From: Pseudomonadota bacterium | Lineage (GTDB): Bacteria; Pseudomonadota; Gammaproteobacteria; Steroidobacterales; Steroidobacteraceae | Assembly: GCA_021851405.1 (NCBI GenBank) | Contig: JAJZDW010000006.1 | Span: forward strand, 1 to 64,000 | Direction of reading: 5' to 3' | DNA length: 64,000 nt | Part shown: one piece after another, positions 38,450-43,833 of the stretch | Position numbering within the stretch: the first letter of the stretch is position 1 | How the letters are laid out: the number at the start of each line of letters is the position of its first letter | The notes under the pieces: generated by a model | Database searches by the model: none | What the model saw: the letters and a program-made list of their open reading frames with translations, nothing else | What the model was told of the DNA's origin: nothing | Position numbers and translations under genes: made by a program

Positions 38450-38535
38450 AACGTCATATCTCAAATAACACGCGGGCCGTGGCTCGCGCCGTCCTTTCCG
38501 GTCGGCGCGCCAGTCCGCACCGGGCGGGGTGTGTC

Positions 38536-39531
38536 TTGGAAGCGATTCTGCAGTTCGCGCAGCAGCTGTACCGCATGGCGCAGCGGGCCGTGTCGGAGCC
38601 GTTCGAGGACCTGGCGCTCGCGGCACTCACCGGACAGGTGCCCTTCGATGCCGCGTTGTGGTTCACCGGTCAGATCGACGGCGGCCGCCTGCAGGTGCAT
38701 CGCCTGCACGCCTACCGCATGCCGCCGGCGGCGCTCGAGCCGCTGGTGACCCTGGTACGGCAGCGGCCCGAGACGCTCGTGGCGACCGCCGGGGCGCACG
38801 GGGCGGCGCACCTGGAGGATGCCGCGGCGCTGCTCGAGCGCGGGCTCGATGCGAGCGCGCACGAACAGCTGTGCCGCGGACGGATCGAGCGGCAGCTGCT
38901 GATCGGCACCGCCGCCTGCGGAACCCCGGGCGGGGAGTGGCTCTCCCTGCACCGCGCGCAGAGTGGTGCGCCGTTCGATGCCCAGGACTGCGAACGCGCG
39001 CAGGTGTTGATGCCGCACCTGTCCGAGTCGCGTGCCGTGCACCGGGCGCTGTGCCTGCGGCACGCCTCGGCCGAGCCGGGCATCGCGCCCGGTCCGCATC
39101 GGGCGCTGACGCTGTGCGACGGTACGGTGCTGCACTGCGGCGGGCAGCTCGGGGAGGCGATCGGTGCGCGCTGGCCGGAGTGGAACGGACTGCGACTGCC
39201 GCCGGGGCTGCTGGCCCGGGCGCAGCGCGAGGAGGCCGTGCCGCTCGAGGGGCTCGGGGAGATCATCCAGGCGCGCCGCTTCACCGATGCGCTCGTGCTG
39301 AGCCTGCGCTGGACGGCGCCGCAGGAGCGGCTCACGGCGCGCGAATACGAGGTGGCGCGGCGGTTCGCCGCCGGGGAGGACTACCACGCCGTGGCGCGCC
39401 GCTGCGGACTTGCGCCGGCCACGGTCCGCAATGTGCTGCGCTTCGCGTACCGCAAGCTCGGGATCAACAGCCGTGCGCAGCTGGTGCGGCTGATGCGCCG
39501 CGCCGAGACGGGCGGTAGTGGGTCAGTTTGA
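38536..39531 (+). CDS. LuxR-type helix-turn-helix regulator with an unrecognised N-terminal domain
   Basis: The 331-residue product ends in a LuxR/GerE-type DNA-binding domain (about residues 268-325): RLTAREYEVARRFAAGEDYH, then LAPATVRNVLRFAYRKLGI. The N-terminal 260 residues match no sensor domain that I recognise; no receiver aspartate or autoinducer-binding tryptophan pattern is evident. No ATG is available. The TTG at 38536 starts a plausible protein (LEAILQFAQQLYRMAQRA); a GTG at 38479 would add 19 Arg-rich residues without a ribosome binding site. The final codons (GSV and the stop) lie inside the left border repeat of the island, so the original C-terminus may have been altered. Confidence 0.8.
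   Translation: MEAILQFAQQLYRMAQRAVSEPFEDLALAALTGQVPFDAALWFTGQIDGGRLQVHRLHAYRMPPAALEPLVTLVRQRPETLVATAGAHGAAHLEDAAALLERGLDASAHEQLCRGRIERQLLIGTAACGTPGGEWLSLHRAQSGAPFDAQDCERAQVLMPHLSESRAVHRALCLRHASAEPGIAPGPHRALTLCDGTVLHCGGQLGEAIGARWPEWNGLRLPPGLLARAQREEAVPLEGLGEIIQARRFTDALVLSLRWTAPQERLTAREYEVARRFAAGEDYHAVARRCGLAPATVRNVLRFAYRKLGINSRAQLVRLMRRAETGGSGSV
39519..39529 (+). repeat. Left border inverted repeat TGGGTCAGTTT
   Basis: This 11-bp sequence is the perfect reverse complement of AAACTGACCCA at 41207-41217, so the pair brackets the small KGG-rich gene and the TAC operon. It includes the last codons of the LuxR-type gene. Confidence 0.6.
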
Positions 39532-39539
39532 ATTTGACC
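39527..39539 (+). repeat. Left copy of the 13-bp border direct repeat
   Basis: TTTGAATTTGACC here and TTTGAAATTGACC at 42633-42645 agree at 12 of 13 positions in the same orientation. Together they bracket the entire accessory island. Confidence 0.55.
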
Positions 39540-39568
39540 GATCCTAGCGGGTATGGCAGCGTAGGCCT

Positions 39569-39808
39569 ATGCAAGACCGCTCAAGCAATCTCCCTCGAGA
39601 CGTGAATGTCTTGGCCAAGGTCATAGCAGACGTCGCCACTGGGCAGGCGGAGTTGCCCAGGACCGAGGAGGGGAAGGACCCCGCTGCTGTCGCCTTGGGT
39701 AGGAAGGGTGGCCTCAAGGGTGGGAGAGCGAGGGCGGCCCGCATGTCGCCCTTGCGGCGTTCAGAGATTGCAAAACAGGCGGCAGCAGCGCGCTGGAAGA
39801 AGAGCTAA
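39569..39808 (+). CDS. Small KGG-rich conserved hypothetical protein
   Basis: The 79-residue product is strongly basic in its second half, with the pattern ALGRKGGLKGGRARAARMS followed by EIAKQAAAARWKKS. Small proteins of this type are widespread in accessory regions, and I know of no established function; nucleic-acid binding is plausible from the charge. It starts at the first ATG after the left border repeats. Its stop codon overlaps that of the SecB-like gene on the other strand (39805-39808), so the two units are tail to tail. Confidence 0.65.
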   Translation: MQDRSSNLPRDVNVLAKVIADVATGQAELPRTEEGKDPAAVALGRKGGLKGGRARAARMSPLRRSEIAKQAAAARWKKS

Positions 39809-40287
39809 TCAGGCGTCGCTGCTTCCTCCTCCTCGGCCACTTTCGTTGCAATAGGGCGGAAGACAGGAATCACAATCCCCGCCAGGCCAACGCGACCGGT
39901 AGTGGTTTGAACGATTTCTCGCCAATACGGCCACGCATTGTATGCACCGTTTAACTCCGCGAAGTGCTGGATGCATTTAGGCTCCAGAGTAACGCTCTCA
40001 GGCAGACCATAAACCAGCACGAATGCGGCATCGAGCGTCACGAGATTCCCGTCGTCATCGTCGTCTTTGGAAGCGCGCAGCTTGAATTCCGCAAGGACGT
40101 GAATTTCACGCTCACCCTGCCCGGTCTTCTCTTGATAGGTACAGCGATGCTGCTGCGTAATCGATATTTCTCCCTGCAATGCCAGCTCAGGCGCCAGGAA
40201 TGACTCTACCTGCGCTCTCCTTAACGTGATCGCTTTGAGCTGCACATGCTTCGCCACTTGCCGAGCAAACTGGATGTTTGTCGTCAC
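39805..40287 (-). CDS. SecB-like chaperone of a toxin-antitoxin-chaperone (TAC) system
   Basis: In TAC systems a SecB-like chaperone binds the antitoxin C-terminus, protects it from proteolysis and lets it neutralise the toxin. The 160-residue product shows the SecB pattern: alternating beta strands (about 12-100), a helix with the AYNAWPYWREIVQTTTGR segment (115-132), then hydrophobic LAGIVIPVFRP, comparable to the SecB helix and the PPLLLAPINF strand. It has an acidic tail (EEEEAATPD) but no zinc-binding Cys/His tail, unlike housekeeping SecB. The GTG at 40287 overlaps the antitoxin stop codon as GTGA and has GGGAG six bases upstream. Gene order (toxin, antitoxin, chaperone) equals M. tuberculosis Rv1955-Rv1957. 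Confidence 0.8.
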   Translation of the reverse strand: MTTNIQFARQVAKHVQLKAITLRRAQVESFLAPELALQGEISITQQHRCTYQEKTGQGEREIHVLAEFKLRASKDDDDDGNLVTLDAAFVLVYGLPESVTLEPKCIQHFAELNGAYNAWPYWREIVQTTTGRVGLAGIVIPVFRPIATKVAEEEEAATPD

Positions 40288-40703
40288 ATGCAACTCCCGG
40301 ACGCCAAGAGTTCAATTGCGTCGTCATGGGCGTTTTCCCACTGCTGGGATGTTGTTTCCTTAAAGTTCACAACTCGACGTTTCGGCTCGACAACCATTAC
40401 GGGACTGGAGATGTAATCTCCAGTCCGGAGCGGCTCGGTCTTCAAGCAAAGCCTTACACCGCAGGCCCAAGCAAGATCGGAGAGGGTGCGCAAGGTGAGA
40501 TTGCGAGATCCAGAAAAAATCTGAGTAATATTGGCGCGACTGGTACCGAGCGCTCGCGCGATATCAGCTTTCGTAAGGTCGCTTCGCTCCATCGCCTCGT
40601 AGAGTTCGTCCAACACCCAAATCGCCAAGCGCTCGTACTCGTAGTCTCGCCGGCGCTCAGTGGTCTTTTGCTGCCGGTCGATCCATTCTCTATTGGCGCT
40701 CAT
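40284..40703 (-). CDS. higA: HigA-like antitoxin with C-terminal chaperone-addiction-type tail
   Basis: The antitoxin neutralises the HigB-like toxin and probably represses the operon. The 139-residue product has an XRE-type helix-turn-helix at about 41-85 (LTKADIARALGTSRANITQI). A tail of about 50 residues (90-139) follows, which ordinary HigA proteins lack; it contains the hydrophobic stretch YISSPVMVVEP and W122. In TAC systems the equivalent tail (ChAD) makes the antitoxin unstable and chaperone-dependent. The ATG at 40703 is chosen because AGGA lies 7 bases upstream; the ATG at 40709 would be too close. The start overlaps the toxin end by 14 bp. Confidence 0.85.
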   Translation of the reverse strand: MSANREWIDRQQKTTERRRDYEYERLAIWVLDELYEAMERSDLTKADIARALGTSRANITQIFSGSRNLTLRTLSDLAWACGVRLCLKTEPLRTGDYISSPVMVVEPKRRVVNFKETTSQQWENAHDDAIELLASGSCM

Positions 40704-41115
40704 GGTCATTTCCTGTCTCTGCCTGATTCAAGTAATCTGTCCTAAGCTTCTCTGCGCGATCTAAATCGCGCTTCTGATGCTTATCCTGTTTCTTTCGCAA
40801 CGCGTGGCATATGACCACTCGTTTGTTCGAGGTGTAGAAACAGATCAATCTAATTTGATGTCGTTTAAACTCGAATAATTTCGTGCCCTCTATTTTTTTA
40901 AACAGCTCTTTGTTGCTGATGCGGCCTTGATTTCCAAGTCGCTCAAAAAGAACGTCAACCTTTCCACGCTCCTGTTCTGTGAGCTGTCCAAGGAAGTCGG
41001 CGACGGGGCTTGCCTCGTTGTCCAAGACGAGTAGCTCGATAGCTAACTGGTTGCCTCTGTACTCGCACCTCGTGCGCAACGCCGGCTCTCCATTGATGAC
41101 CGGCCCATCGTTCAA
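40690..41115 (-). CDS. higB: HigB/Gp49-family toxin (RelE-superfamily mRNA interferase)
   Basis: HigB toxins cut mRNA in the ribosomal A site. The 141-residue product has the Gp49-like pattern: an N-terminal strand (AIELLVLDN), two helices (SPVADFLGQLTEQERGK, VDVLFERLG), then the core LFEFKRHQIRLICFYTSNKR and VVICHALRKKQDKHQKRDL, whose basic residues fit the RNA-binding surface. The ATT/TTG region offers only a TTG start at 41115, about 16 nt after the predicted transcription start; the first 20 residues are not family-like, so the true start may be later. It is the first gene of the TAC operon. Confidence 0.83.
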   Translation of the reverse strand: MNDGPVINGEPALRTRCEYRGNQLAIELLVLDNEASPVADFLGQLTEQERGKVDVLFERLGNQGRISNKELFKKIEGTKLFEFKRHQIRLICFYTSNKRVVICHALRKKQDKHQKRDLDRAEKLRTDYLNQAETGNDHERQ

Positions 41116-41137
41116 TCCTAGGCCATGTCGAAATCAA

Positions 41138-41166
41138 ATTGTTAATTTATAAATTAACGTTGTCAA
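41138..41166 (-). promoter_or_regulatory. TAC operon promoter with an 18-bp palindromic operator
   Basis: On the minus strand a perfect -35 box TTGACA (41166-41161) is followed after 17 bp by AACAAT (41143-41138). The spacer and the first three bases of the -10 box are covered by GTTAATTTATAAATTAAC (41141-41158), a perfect 18-bp palindrome. A HigA dimer bound there would block RNA polymerase, giving the usual autoregulation of such operons. Confidence 0.7.
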
Positions 41167-41206
41167 GACGAGAGGGGCTATTCGTGAAAGCTCGACAGAA
41201 AATCTG

Positions 41207-41217
41207 AAACTGACCCA
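41207..41217 (-). repeat. Internal repeat AAACTGACCCA
   Basis: It is the inverted partner of 39519-39529 and lies between the TAC promoter and the transposase promoter. The TAC operon with its convergent small gene therefore forms a unit of about 1.7 kb with matched ends. Confidence 0.55.
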
Positions 41218-41222
41218 TATGC

Positions 41223-41251
41223 TTGAGCGATCAAGGAATTTAGTGTATTAT
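41223..41251 (+). promoter_or_regulatory. Transposase promoter, probably giving a leaderless transcript
   Basis: TTGAGC (41223-41228) and TATTAT (41246-41251) are separated by 17 bp. Transcription would begin near 41258, only about 2 bases before the ATG at 41260. A perfect 12-bp palindrome ATTTACGTAAAT (41250-41261) spans the -10 end and the start codon. Confidence 0.55.
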
Positions 41252-41259
41252 TTACGTAA

Positions 41260-42111
41260 ATGAATCGCCTTCCTATCGCTGTTCGTTCCCGAGTTCTCGC
41301 ATGCCTCGTCGAAGGCAATTCCATCCGGGCGACTGCCCGAATGACCGACACGGCCAAAAATACAGTGGCGAAGCTGCTGGCTGAGGTCGGTGCGGCGTGT
41401 GCGGAGTACCAGGATAAAGCCCTCCGGTATCTTCCCTGCAAGCGTATTCAGTGCGACCAGATTTGGTCATTCGGCTGTGCGAAGGTTGCGAGCGTCGCGA
41501 CAGCGAGAACCGCTGCGCAAGGCGCAGGGGATGCTTGGACGTGGATCGCCCTTTGCGCCGATACGAGGCTTGTCCCATGCTGGATGATCGGTCCTCGGGA
41601 TGCGGGGGGAGGCTACGACTTCATGCAGGACTTGGCATCCCGAATGACCAATCGCATCCAGCTCGCCACTGACGGCCATAAGGTTTGCGTAGAAACTGGA
41701 GCAGGCGCGTTAGGCGCGAATATCGACTACGCCATGTTGGTGAAGCTTTACGGCGAGGCTCCTAATAAAAGGCCAGAGCGCAAGTACAGACGGAATACCT
41801 GCCTTGGTGCGGAGCCGACCACGATCACCGCGAACCGGGATGTCGGAACCGAAAGCACTTCCTGCGATGAGAGCCAGAATCTCACAATGCGAATGTCTCG
41901 GCGGGGGGGGGCTCGGCTGACCACTGGTTTCTCGAATAAGATCGAAAGCCTCGGTCACGCGGTCGCATTGCACTTCATGTGGTATAACTTTGGCCAAATT
42001 CATCAATCTCTGCAGATCACCCCGGCAATTGCGACTGGCGTCTCGGATCATGTTTGGTCATTAGCGGAAATAGCGGATTTGGCAGATCCTAGCGAAGAAG
42101 ATCGAGATTAA
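41260..42111 (+). CDS. IS1-family-like transposase, probably degenerate
   Basis: The 283-residue product matches the single-frame IS1-like transposases common in proteobacteria: an N-terminal helix-turn-helix (SIRATARMT, NTVAKLL), then a DDE core with D66 (CDQIWSF), D138 (LATDGH) and E204 (DESQNLTMRM), and a C-terminal HQSLQITPAIATG. The usual VERQNLTMRMSMRRFTRLTN block is distorted around a run of nine G (about 41903-41911), reading RRGGARLTTGF, which suggests decay through compensating indels. Its promoter is leaderless-type. The two following genes may be read from the same transcript. Confidence 0.75.
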   Translation: MNRLPIAVRSRVLACLVEGNSIRATARMTDTAKNTVAKLLAEVGAACAEYQDKALRYLPCKRIQCDQIWSFGCAKVASVATARTAAQGAGDAWTWIALCADTRLVPCWMIGPRDAGGGYDFMQDLASRMTNRIQLATDGHKVCVETGAGALGANIDYAMLVKLYGEAPNKRPERKYRRNTCLGAEPTTITANRDVGTESTSCDESQNLTMRMSRRGGARLTTGFSNKIESLGHAVALHFMWYNFGQIHQSLQITPAIATGVSDHVWSLAEIADLADPSEEDRD

Positions 42112-42128
42112 GAATAAAGGGGAAGGGA

Positions 42129-42431
42129 ATGTACGGCAGCGGCTGGCCCACTCGAGGCGCCTCGAGATCGTCTGTGTTTTGGCGCTCAATTCTTCTGCTG
42201 CTCGGTCATCTGCTTGCGACCGCTGCCGTGTTCGTGGCGCTATTCACATTGGGGTGGTTGGTCTCGTGCGCGTTCAACTATTTGAATTCCATCCATAAAT
42301 TTCCTTCCACAATTCTGATACTACTTACTCACTTAGAGGTCGGGCTGGTGTATATAGATGCTGGTTTGAGCGGCGCGGTGCTCCTGGCTGGTATATTTCG
42401 CTTCATTCGGGATGTATTGGAGAGCTACTAA
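42129..42431 (+). CDS. Small putative membrane protein of unknown function
   Basis: The 100-residue product has a short polar start and then strongly hydrophobic segments at about 16-43 (FWRSILLLLGHLLATAAVFV and on) and about 72-92 (GLVYIDAGLSGAVLLAGIF), so probably two membrane helices. The ATG is preceded by AAGGGA at suitable spacing. It begins 17 bp after the transposase and is followed without a gap by another small gene. I do not recognise the family. Confidence 0.55.
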   Translation: MYGSGWPTRGASRSSVFWRSILLLLGHLLATAAVFVALFTLGWLVSCAFNYLNSIHKFPSTILILLTHLEVGLVYIDAGLSGAVLLAGIFRFIRDVLESY

Positions 42432-42587
42432 ATGGCAACGAACTCTCTAGGTGCGTTCGCAGAGGGATTCCGAGACGCGTTGCGGCTTTTCGTCGCAATG
42501 ATTGCAGCGCCATTGGCGGTTCTTTCTTCGTTCACCCGCCATGGTTTAGGCAAATCGCATCACGGAGGCACGACACATCCGTGCTGA
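42432..42587 (+). CDS. 51-residue peptide with one hydrophobic segment
   Basis: The ATG follows the stop codon of the preceding gene with no spacing (TAAATG), which suggests translational coupling. The product begins MATNSLGAFAEGFRDALRLF, has a hydrophobic stretch (LFVAMIAAPLAVLSSF, about residues 19-34) and a His/Gly-rich end with a terminal cysteine. A strong terminator follows 23 bp later, so it is the last gene of a unit. Function unknown; a membrane-active peptide or partner of the upstream protein is possible. Confidence 0.45.
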   Translation: MATNSLGAFAEGFRDALRLFVAMIAAPLAVLSSFTRHGLGKSHHGGTTHPC

Positions 42588-42610
42588 GCGTTGCGAAATT
42601 GATTATGGAA

Positions 42611-42635
42611 GGGCGCCACTAGGCGCCCTTTTTTT
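42611..42635 (+). terminator. Rho-independent terminator at the right end of the island
   Basis: GGGCGCC and GGCGCCC form a perfect 7-bp stem with an ACTA loop, followed directly by seven T. It ends rightward transcription from the transposase/small-gene unit before prfB. The last three T belong to the border repeat. Confidence 0.9.
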
Positions 42636-42645
42636 GAAATTGACC
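42633..42645 (+). repeat. Right copy of the 13-bp border direct repeat
   Basis: TTTGAAATTGACC matches the left copy at 12 of 13 positions. It contains a TTGACC at 42640-42645 that, with TAGTGT at 42663-42668 (17 bp apart), could serve as a -35 box for prfB. Confidence 0.55.
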
Positions 42646-42737
42646 CGCGACCGGGTCGAAGCTAGTGTGGAAATTCCACCGGCGGGCCGCTAGCATGGTA
42701 GATCCCTTCCCGCATTTCACCCGGACGGCACCGCACG

Positions 42738-43833
42738 ATGGAACTCAATCCTCTGAAGCGCCAGCTCAAAGACCTCGAGGAGCGCATGAGCTCCCTACGG
42801 GGGTTTCTTTGAGTACGACCTGAAGAAAGAGCGTCTGGAGGAAGTTTCCCGCGAGCTGGAGGATTCGCGCGTGTGGTCGCAGCCCGAACGGGCCCAGCAG
42901 CTCGGCCGGGAGCGGGCGAACCTGAGCACGGACATCGAGGCGATCGCCCGGGTCGACGGGGGCATCAGCTCGGCCACGGAGCTGCTCGCGCTCGCCGAGA
43001 GCGAGCAGGACGAGGCGACGGCTGCGGATCTGACCCGCGAGGCGGGCAGCCTCGAAGCCGCGGTGCGCCGACTGGAGCTCAAGCGCATGTTCCGCGGGGA
43101 GATGGACTCGCACAGCGCGTTTCTCGACATTCAGGCCGGCGCCGGCGGCACCGAGGCGCAGGACTGGGCGCAGATGCTGCTCAGGATGTATCTGCGCTGG
43201 GGCGCGGCCCGCGGTTTCGAGTGCGAGGTGATCGATTCGAACCCGGGCGAGGTCGCCGGCATCAAGAGCGCCACCGTCCAGGTGACGGGCGAGTTCGCCT
43301 ACGGCTGGCTGCGCACCGAGACCGGGGTGCATCGCCTGGTGCGCAAGTCCCCGTTCGACTCGGGCAACCGCCGCCACACCTCCTTCGCCTCGGTGTTCAT
43401 CTCCCCGGAGGTCGATGAGGACATCGCCATCGACATCAACCCGGCGGATCTGAAGACCGATGTGTACCGCTCCTCTGGCGCCGGTGGCCAGCACGTCAAC
43501 AAGACGGAGTCGGCGGTGCGCATCACGCACATGCCCTCCGGCATCGTCGTGGCCTGTCAGGCGGAACGCAGCCAGCACAAGAACCGCTCCACGGCGATGA
43601 AGATGCTGAAGGCGAAGCTGTACGAGCTCGAGGTGAACAAGCGCAACGCCGCCGCCAAGGTGCTCGAGGATTCCAAGTCCGACGTCAGTTGGGGCAATCA
43701 GATCCGCTCCTACGTGCTCGATCAGTCGCGCATCAAAGACCTGCGCACGGGTGTCGAGGTCGGCAACACCACCGCGGTGCTCGATGGGGATCTGGATCAA
43801 TTCTTGGAAGCCTCACTCAAGGCGGGGCTATAG
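42738..43833 (+). CDS. prfB: Peptide chain release factor 2, made by programmed +1 frameshifting
   Basis: RF2 terminates translation at UGA and UAA. The first 24 codons (42738-42809, [20 protein letters not shown] and on) end at an in-frame UGA at 42810-42812. After a +1 shift on CTT the frame resumes with GAG at 42811 and runs to 43833, giving 364 residues (E. coli 365). The codon-recognition motif SPF is in VRKSPFDSG, and the catalytic GGQ is in [14 protein letters not shown]. lysS follows after 7 bp, the usual pair. Confidence 0.97.
42798..42813 (+). promoter_or_regulatory. RF2 autoregulatory frameshift site
   Basis: CGG GGG TTT CTT TGA G reproduces the RF2 recoding site: an internal Shine-Dalgarno-like GGGGG three bases ahead of the slippery CTT, then the UGA stop in a poor context. 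Low RF2 slows termination at UGA and favours the shift, so RF2 controls its own level. Confidence 0.95.

What the first reader, a model, noticed from the sequence alone, without database searches (positions are those of the whole stretch)
39805..41166. Three-gene toxin-antitoxin-chaperone (TAC) operon with a SecB-like chaperone
Seen: three overlapping minus-strand genes (14 bp and 4 bp overlaps) encode a HigB/Gp49-type toxin, an XRE-type antitoxin with a tail of about 50 residues, and a 160-residue SecB-like protein lacking the zinc tail of housekeeping SecB. Known: in the M. tuberculosis Rv1955-1957 system a SecB-like chaperone protects the antitoxin through such a tail (ChAD). Inferred: this is a chaperone-addicted TA module carried on a mobile island. 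Tail sequences of TAC antitoxins vary greatly, so this tail-chaperone pair may be a new specificity.
Basis: partly seen in the sequence, partly recalled or inferred. Interest (0 to 1): 0.78.

Follow-up and report, generated by a model that had tools for sequence, protein, structure and literature searches.

The report
Chaperone-guarded toxin-antitoxin operon on island
Three overlapping bacterial genes look like a known kind of self-poisoning switch in which a dedicated SecB-like chaperone keeps the antidote usable; here the antidote lacks the degradation-tag ending that most of its relatives carry.

Summary
The three overlapping minus-strand genes are real: a HigB/Gp49 toxin (Pfam 8.7e-12), an XRE antitoxin and a SecB-like protein that Pfam SecB misses. 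The SecB-like family profile finds one solved structure, the tuberculosis TAC chaperone Rv1957 (1.9e-12); AlphaFold2 gives the SecB layout (pLDDT 91). Of 80 relatives kept, 65 follow a HigA-like antitoxin. A long tail marks chaperone-linked antitoxins: median 52 residues against 9 in 27 chaperone-less homologues, 54 here. It is predicted disordered. A palindrome GTTWA-N8-TWAAC precedes the toxin in 37 of 65 regions (0.14 expected). The operon lies in a ~3.15-kb low-GC insertion not seen at this site in 19 congeners. The TAC reading stands; toxicity and chaperone dependence are inferred. One departure: 59 of 65 relatives' antitoxins end in two small residues, like the ClpX degron of HigA1 (PMC8165232). 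The window and its three closest relatives do not.

The parts
41161..41166 (-). TTGACA, -35-like box of the operon promoter
   Evidence: read; a TTG[AC][CT]N box lies just before or at the palindrome in 22 of 37 palindrome-bearing regions
41141..41158 (.). 18-bp perfect palindrome GTTAATTTATAAATTAAC, candidate operator for the antitoxin
   Evidence: GTTWA-N8-TWAAC in 37 of 65 upstream regions, 0.14 expected from dinucleotide shuffles, 0 in the control regions
40690..41079 (-). toxin gene, HigB/Gp49 type, 129 aa from TTG 41079 (longest frame starts at 41115)
   Evidence: Pfam PF05973 8.7e-12; family profile finds HigB toxin 6af3 at 9.3e-9; start
40284..40709 (-). antitoxin gene, XRE/HigA type, 141 aa (or from ATG 40703)
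   Evidence: HTH_3 7.8e-9; relatives; AlphaFold2 HTH core confident
40287..40436 (-). C-terminal tail of the antitoxin (residues 92-141), candidate chaperone-addiction tail, ending ELLASGSCM without a terminal ClpX-type degron
   Evidence: tail length 54 against median 9 in 27 chaperone-less homologues; low confidence in the model; first part EPLRTGDYISSP shared with three closest relatives
39805..40287 (-). SecB-like chaperone gene, 160 aa, GTG start
   Evidence: profile match to Rv1957 1.9e-12; AlphaFold2 pLDDT 91.0; hhalign to housekeeping SecB 89.5%, 1.9e-6
39515..42660 (.). insertion of about 3.15 kb holding the operon, an IS1-like transposase and small ORFs
   Evidence: three closest congeners have the flanks 39512-39514 and 42661-42668 joined within 1-6 bp; GC 0.48-0.60 in windows 39500-42499 against 0.64-0.78 around

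Best explanation
A horizontally acquired type II toxin-antitoxin-chaperone (TAC) operon of the HigBA-SecB kind. The toxin is probably a ribosome-dependent mRNA endonuclease that stops growth when free (inferred from family). The XRE antitoxin binds it and represses the operon at the palindrome (inferred; the palindrome is conserved). A disordered tail of about 50 residues makes the antitoxin need the SecB-like protein encoded next to it to fold and last (inferred from the tail-chaperone link across the family). When the chaperone is drawn off by another client, such as stalled exported proteins or a phage protein, the antitoxin fails and the toxin acts (inferred). Shown here: gene order, family assignments, predicted SecB layout, tail specificity, operator conservation, insertion. 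Not shown: toxicity, neutralisation, chaperone requirement, trigger.
For: Gene order with overlaps; toxin Gp49 8.7e-12 and antitoxin HTH_3 7.8e-9; SecB-like profile finds Rv1957 alone at 1.9e-12; AlphaFold2 SecB layout; profile-profile match to housekeeping SecB; 65 of 80 kept relatives lie behind a HigA-like antitoxin; long tail only in chaperone-linked antitoxins, predicted disordered; operator in 37 of 65 regions; insertion. Three further TACs of HigA, MqsA and HicB families were shown to need their chaperone by others (PMC5105189).
Against: No direct test of toxicity, binding or dependence. Pfam SecB does not match the protein and reaches only 5 of 57 relatives. The ClpX-type ending common in TAC antitoxins is absent. 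Fold search against PDB was never served. Twenty-eight of 65 regions lack the strict palindrome.
Confidence: 0.8

Rival explanations
1. The operon is a TAC whose selected role is anti-phage defence: a phage protein draws off the SecB-like protein, the antitoxin collapses and the toxin aborts infection, as for CmdTAC and MqsRAC. This adds a role to the best explanation rather than replacing it.
For: CmdTAC is triggered by a phage capsid protein (PMC11618068, passages) and MqsRAC protects against T2 (PMC9519451, passages); mobile setting; the antitoxin resembles PADLOC candidate models PDC-M64B at 1.6e-9.
Against: Neither the toxin nor the SecB-like protein matched a PADLOC model convincingly (toxin best 0.0029, SecB-like none); no defence gene among the neighbours scanned; PADLOC hit may rest on the common HTH.
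Confidence: 0.35
2. An ordinary two-gene HigBA pair with a SecB-like passenger gene that the antitoxin does not need.
For: The terminal degron typical of TAC antitoxins is missing, and chaperone need is untested.
Against: 65 of 80 kept relatives keep the pairing across several phyla; the long tail goes with the chaperone; overlapping genes and a shared start region.
Confidence: 0.08
3. A decayed, inactive remnant of a TAC operon.
For: One copy in the genome searched and none in the 20 congeners listed; a deletion remnant exists elsewhere (L030, antitoxin codons running into SecB-like codons).
Against: Three open frames with family-invariant residues kept; promoter box and palindrome present.
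Confidence: 0.05

Closest known systems
Mtb-TAC, Rv1955-Rv1956-Rv1957 (HigB1-HigA1-SecB-TA)
   Same: HigB-type toxin, XRE antitoxin with C-terminal tail, SecB-like chaperone; Rv1957 is the only PDB sequence found by the family profile.
   Different: HigA1 ends Val-Ala, its ClpX degron (PMC8165232, passages); the window ends SGSCM. Aligned tail-binding pocket residues differ (my reading). Tail motif WHRLSSYRG of HigA1 is not present.
Glov-TAC of Geobacter lovleyi (HigBA-SecB)
   Same: Same antitoxin family; shown by others to need its chaperone (PMC5105189, Results part 2).
   Different: Sequence not compared here.
CmdTAC and MqsRAC of E. coli
   Same: Toxin, antitoxin and SecB-like chaperone; anti-phage (PMC11618068, PMC9519451, passages).
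   Different: Other toxin and antitoxin families; CmdA ends LAA.
   Same: All three genes (antitoxin 41, 49, 47% identity), tail start EPLR-x-G, stop/start overlap, no terminal degron, operator.
   Different: Distal tail unlike the window's; L018 lies in an element with integrase and TrbL genes.
PaHigBA and GraTA operators
   Same: Half-sites TTAAC/GTTAA (PMC6987408, PMC6393540, passages).
   Different: Half-sites stand in the other order there; chaperone neighbours of those systems were not examined here.

Membership tests
TAC, HigBA-SecB type | HigB/RelE-superfamily toxin | tested here: met
   Gp49 8.7e-12; HigB 6af3 9.3e-9 by family profile
TAC, HigBA-SecB type | XRE antitoxin with a C-terminal extension absent from chaperone-less homologues | tested here: met
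   54 residues against median 9 in 27 homologues, three outliers above 200
TAC, HigBA-SecB type | SecB-family gene in the same operon | tested here: met
   4-bp overlap
TAC, HigBA-SecB type | neutralisation needs the chaperone | not testable with these tools
   bench test needed
TAC, HigBA-SecB type | chaperone binds the tail | not testable with these tools
   no complex prediction on offer
TAC antitoxins with a terminal ClpX-type degron (common, not defining) | two small or hydrophobic residues at the C-terminus (VA, LAA and the like) | tested here: not met
   window ends SCM; 59 of 65 relatives end small-small
SecB family PF02556 | score over the Pfam cut-off | tested here: not met
   no match at 0.1; 5 of 57 relatives match at 0.01; 33 TAC chaperones outside PF02556 are in print (PMC4257090, section 12)
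SecB family PF02556 | SecB fold: N-terminal helix in TAC forms, four strands, long helix | tested here: met
   order of elements in the AlphaFold2 model, pLDDT 91.0; no structure search could be run
SecB family PF02556 | SecA binding and export role | not testable with these tools
   bench test needed

The most novel reading that the evidence does not exclude
The SecB-like protein then works as a folding gate alone, and the toxin is freed without ClpXP. This separates two roles that share one tail in HigA1.
Probability: 0.28. Interest if true: 0.62.

Novelty: new member of a known kind. Interest (0 to 1): 0.42.

Why it matters
What frees the toxin of a TAC system is only partly known. In CmdTAC release goes through ClpP-dependent degradation of the antitoxin, and in HigA1 the chaperone site and the ClpX degron share one tail (PMC11618068, PMC8165232, passages). 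A natural system with the long tail but without the terminal degron would let folding control and degradation control be tested apart. The survey also shows a chaperone family, largely missed by Pfam SecB (5 of 57), in many Planctomycetota and Gemmatimonadota genomes with a shared operator, which helps annotation.

Tried and rejected
Viral and plasmid collections: no relative of the SecB-like protein was confirmed in viral contigs with the single-sequence query; the antitoxin query gave one HTH match whose locus showed no TAC by eye (L017). Plasmids gave 11 records with distant SecB hits, 24.8-40.4% identity, 8 of them Acinetobacter.

Transposon ends: a 13-of-16 inverted repeat at the insertion edges (2 of 300 shuffles) and an exact 11-nt pair, 39519-39529 with 41207-41217. 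The second is matched by other exact 11-nt pairs in the region. Neither is claimed as an element end.

Overlap as the cause of degron loss: rejected as sufficient, since 17 overlapping loci keep the small-small ending.

Hairpin inside the antitoxin tail: not found in L018, L021 or six other relatives; not used.

Errors of mine: the L020 toxin row was in a wrong frame; it was dropped and the alignment rebuilt. A first regex for antitoxins found 30 of 80 and was replaced by an HMM built from those 30 and the window (65 of 80). In one search the housekeeping SecB set held 13 of 21 loci and missed the own SecB; the script stopped on that missing sequence after the hhalign result was printed. The operator pattern was chosen after looking at ten loci and the window, so its count is not blind. 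My note names L030 and L031 as antitoxin-SecB fusions; only L030 shows antitoxin codons.

Fold search: asked ten times, never served.

Full report
What is there. On the minus strand, in order, lie a toxin gene (40690-41079, or from 41115), an antitoxin gene (40284-40709) and a SecB-like gene (39805-40287), with overlaps of 14 or 20 bp and 4 bp. The toxin matches PF05973 Gp49 at 8.7e-12 and the antitoxin HTH_3 at 7.8e-9; the third protein has no SecB hit in Pfam or NCBIfam. The likely toxin start is TTG 41079, with GGAGAG six bases upstream and an N-terminus that fits its relatives.

The third protein. Its best single-sequence PDB match was Rv1957, the TAC chaperone of M. tuberculosis, at only 0.074. 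With 56 relatives (alignment A4) the profile finds Rv1957 alone at up to 0.01, with 1.9e-12. AlphaFold2 on A4 gives mean pLDDT 91.0 and pTM 0.83, with helix 5-12, four strands and helix 103-132. This is the order described for Rv1957 (PMC6377645, Results parts 1 and 2 of 4 read). hhalign against 13 housekeeping SecB sequences gives 89.5% and 1.9e-6 over 120 columns. Pfam SecB reaches only 5 of the 57 rows, so such genes are easily missed; a 2014 review also counted 33 TAC chaperones outside PF02556 (PMC4257090, section 12 read). A Foldseek check was never served.

Relatives. A scan of genome contigs found 213 relatives through one conserved motif and kept the best 80. By their titles they come mainly from Planctomycetota and Gemmatimonadota, with others from Acidobacteriota, Pseudomonadota and more. 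An HMM puts a HigA-like antitoxin directly upstream in 65 of 80. Among the other 15, a simple pattern flagged three as MqsA-like (L045, L059, L088). Searches of the window's own order and class gave MqsRA-SecB (L003, L004, L007, L008), HicAB-SecB (L010, L012, L014) and HigBA-SecB operons (L009, L011, L013), assigned by eye. The closest to the window are Rhodanobacter sp. DHB23 (42%), a Gemmatimonadetes MAG (41%), a Bryobacterales MAG (40%) and Pseudoxanthomonas beigongshangi (40%). In a tree of 65 SecB-like proteins the window falls in a 12-row group with L018, L021, seven Gemmatimonadota rows, L020 and L088 (support 87/99, below the tool's star), apart from the seven rows of its own class; the order inside the group is not resolved.

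The tail. Twenty-seven HTH homologues from the same class without a SecB-like gene in the fetched locus end a median of 9 residues after a fixed point of the antitoxin HMM. Sixty-five chaperone-linked antitoxins, window included, run a median of 52 residues and the window 54. Five of the 27 are outliers of 45 residues or more, so the split is strong but not absolute; the HMM was built from chaperone-linked antitoxins. The predicted window antitoxin has a confident HTH core (residues 21-90, block means 90-98) and a low-confidence tail (block means 44-68). In the four closest systems the first part of the tail is shared (EPLR-x-G-x-[FY]-[IM]-x-x-P) and the rest varies.

The operator. GTTAATTTATAAATTAAC lies just after a TTGACA box upstream of the toxin and occurs once in the window. 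The pattern GTTWA-N8-TWAAC occurs in 37 of 65 upstream regions (64 loci and the window; one locus had too little sequence), with 0.14 expected from dinucleotide shuffles and none in the control regions at the end of the antitoxin gene. The other 28 lack the strict pattern. Known HigA and GraA operators use TTAAC/GTTAA half-sites in the other order (PMC6987408, PMC6393540; passages). Autorepression is likely, not shown.

The missing degron. HigA1 of M. tuberculosis ends Val-Ala, its ClpX degron (PMC8165232, passages), and CmdA ends LAA like other known TAC antitoxins (PMC11618068, passages). Here 59 of 65 antitoxins end in two residues out of A, V, S, G and P, with 6.5 expected from their own composition; the SecB-like proteins of the same loci do so in 10 of 64, and the chaperone-less homologues in 8 of 27, with 2.4 expected. 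The six exceptions are L018, L021, L077, L079, L087 and L096. The window ends ELLASGSCM, L018 RLTAAGGL, L021 QLEAKCG. In these three the antitoxin stop overlaps the SecB-like start and the last codons are its presumed ribosome-binding site. A fourth close system found after this was noticed (L186) has the same overlap, ends ARAGAMW and carries the operator. Overlap alone is not the cause: 17 loci overlap and keep the ending. The four are related, so this may be one event, and another degron is not excluded.

Mobility. In the three closest congeners the end of the luxR gene (39512-39514) is joined within 1-6 bp to the region before prfB (42661-42668). In the 19 congener loci examined (of 25 other congeners searched), none has a match to the operon, the transposase or the small flanking genes within the 1.5 kb or so fetched before prfB. 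The inserted windows have 0.48-0.60 GC against 0.64-0.78 around. Of 296 genomes of the order two matched the SecB-like protein, the window's own and an MqsA-type TAC; all 20 congeners in that sample had none. In Rhodanobacter the operon lies between a tyrosine integrase (1.6e-21) and a TrbL/VirB6 gene (1.4e-25).

How it likely works. Shown: genes, families, predicted layout, tail specificity, operator, insertion. Inferred from TAC systems tested by others (PMC5105189, Results parts 1 and 2 of 3 read): the SecB-like protein binds the tail, lets the antitoxin fold and so keeps the toxin silent; loss of free chaperone activates the toxin. The toxin keeps residues that I align with the active site of HigB proteins (E70, K72, R77, K96 invariant and K100 nearly so in ten relatives; catalytic residues as in PMC9098466, passages; alignment to 6af3). 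The trigger is unknown; phage defence is possible by analogy with CmdTAC and MqsRAC (PMC9519451, passages).

Verdict. A sound new member of the HigBA-SecB TAC kind, from a subgroup poorly covered by databases. The point a specialist would pick up is the absent terminal degron in the window and its nearest relatives. I saw no paper on this in the listings, which cover open-licence papers only.

Noticed in passing
window 41260-42111 (+); L181-L184: IS1-like transposase beside the operon (51.6% to an IS1 family transposase of a Mesorhizobium plasmid; NCBIfam IS1 5.3e-7, below cut-off). In the four relatives fetched of 12 records, the neighbour is an HTH or XRE gene, in Acidiphilium a RES/Xre toxin-antitoxin pair.
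   Followed up: partly
window 40402-40426: Perfect 11-bp hairpin with 3-nt loop inside the antitoxin tail coding sequence; 1 of 1000 shuffles of the operon reaches it; not in L018 or L021.
   Followed up: partly
window 39513-42653 edges: Imperfect inverted repeat, 13 of 16, at the edges of the insertion; 2 of 300 shuffles reach it.
   Followed up: partly
window 39569-39808 (+): 79-aa ORF with a KGGRARA...AAARWKK end, no Pfam or NCBIfam match, inside the insertion.
   Followed up: no
window 38479-39531 (+): LuxR-type regulator gene (GerE 2.7e-10) before prfB; matched in 7 of 19 congener loci, while in 10 others recJ is the match before prfB and in two neither was matched.
   Followed up: partly
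window 42738-43833 (+): prfB with the usual programmed frameshift site CTTTGA (read).
   Followed up: no
L030 3845-4291 (+): Gemmatimonadetes locus in which antitoxin N-terminal codons run in frame into the SecB-like C-terminal part, a likely deletion remnant.
   Followed up: no
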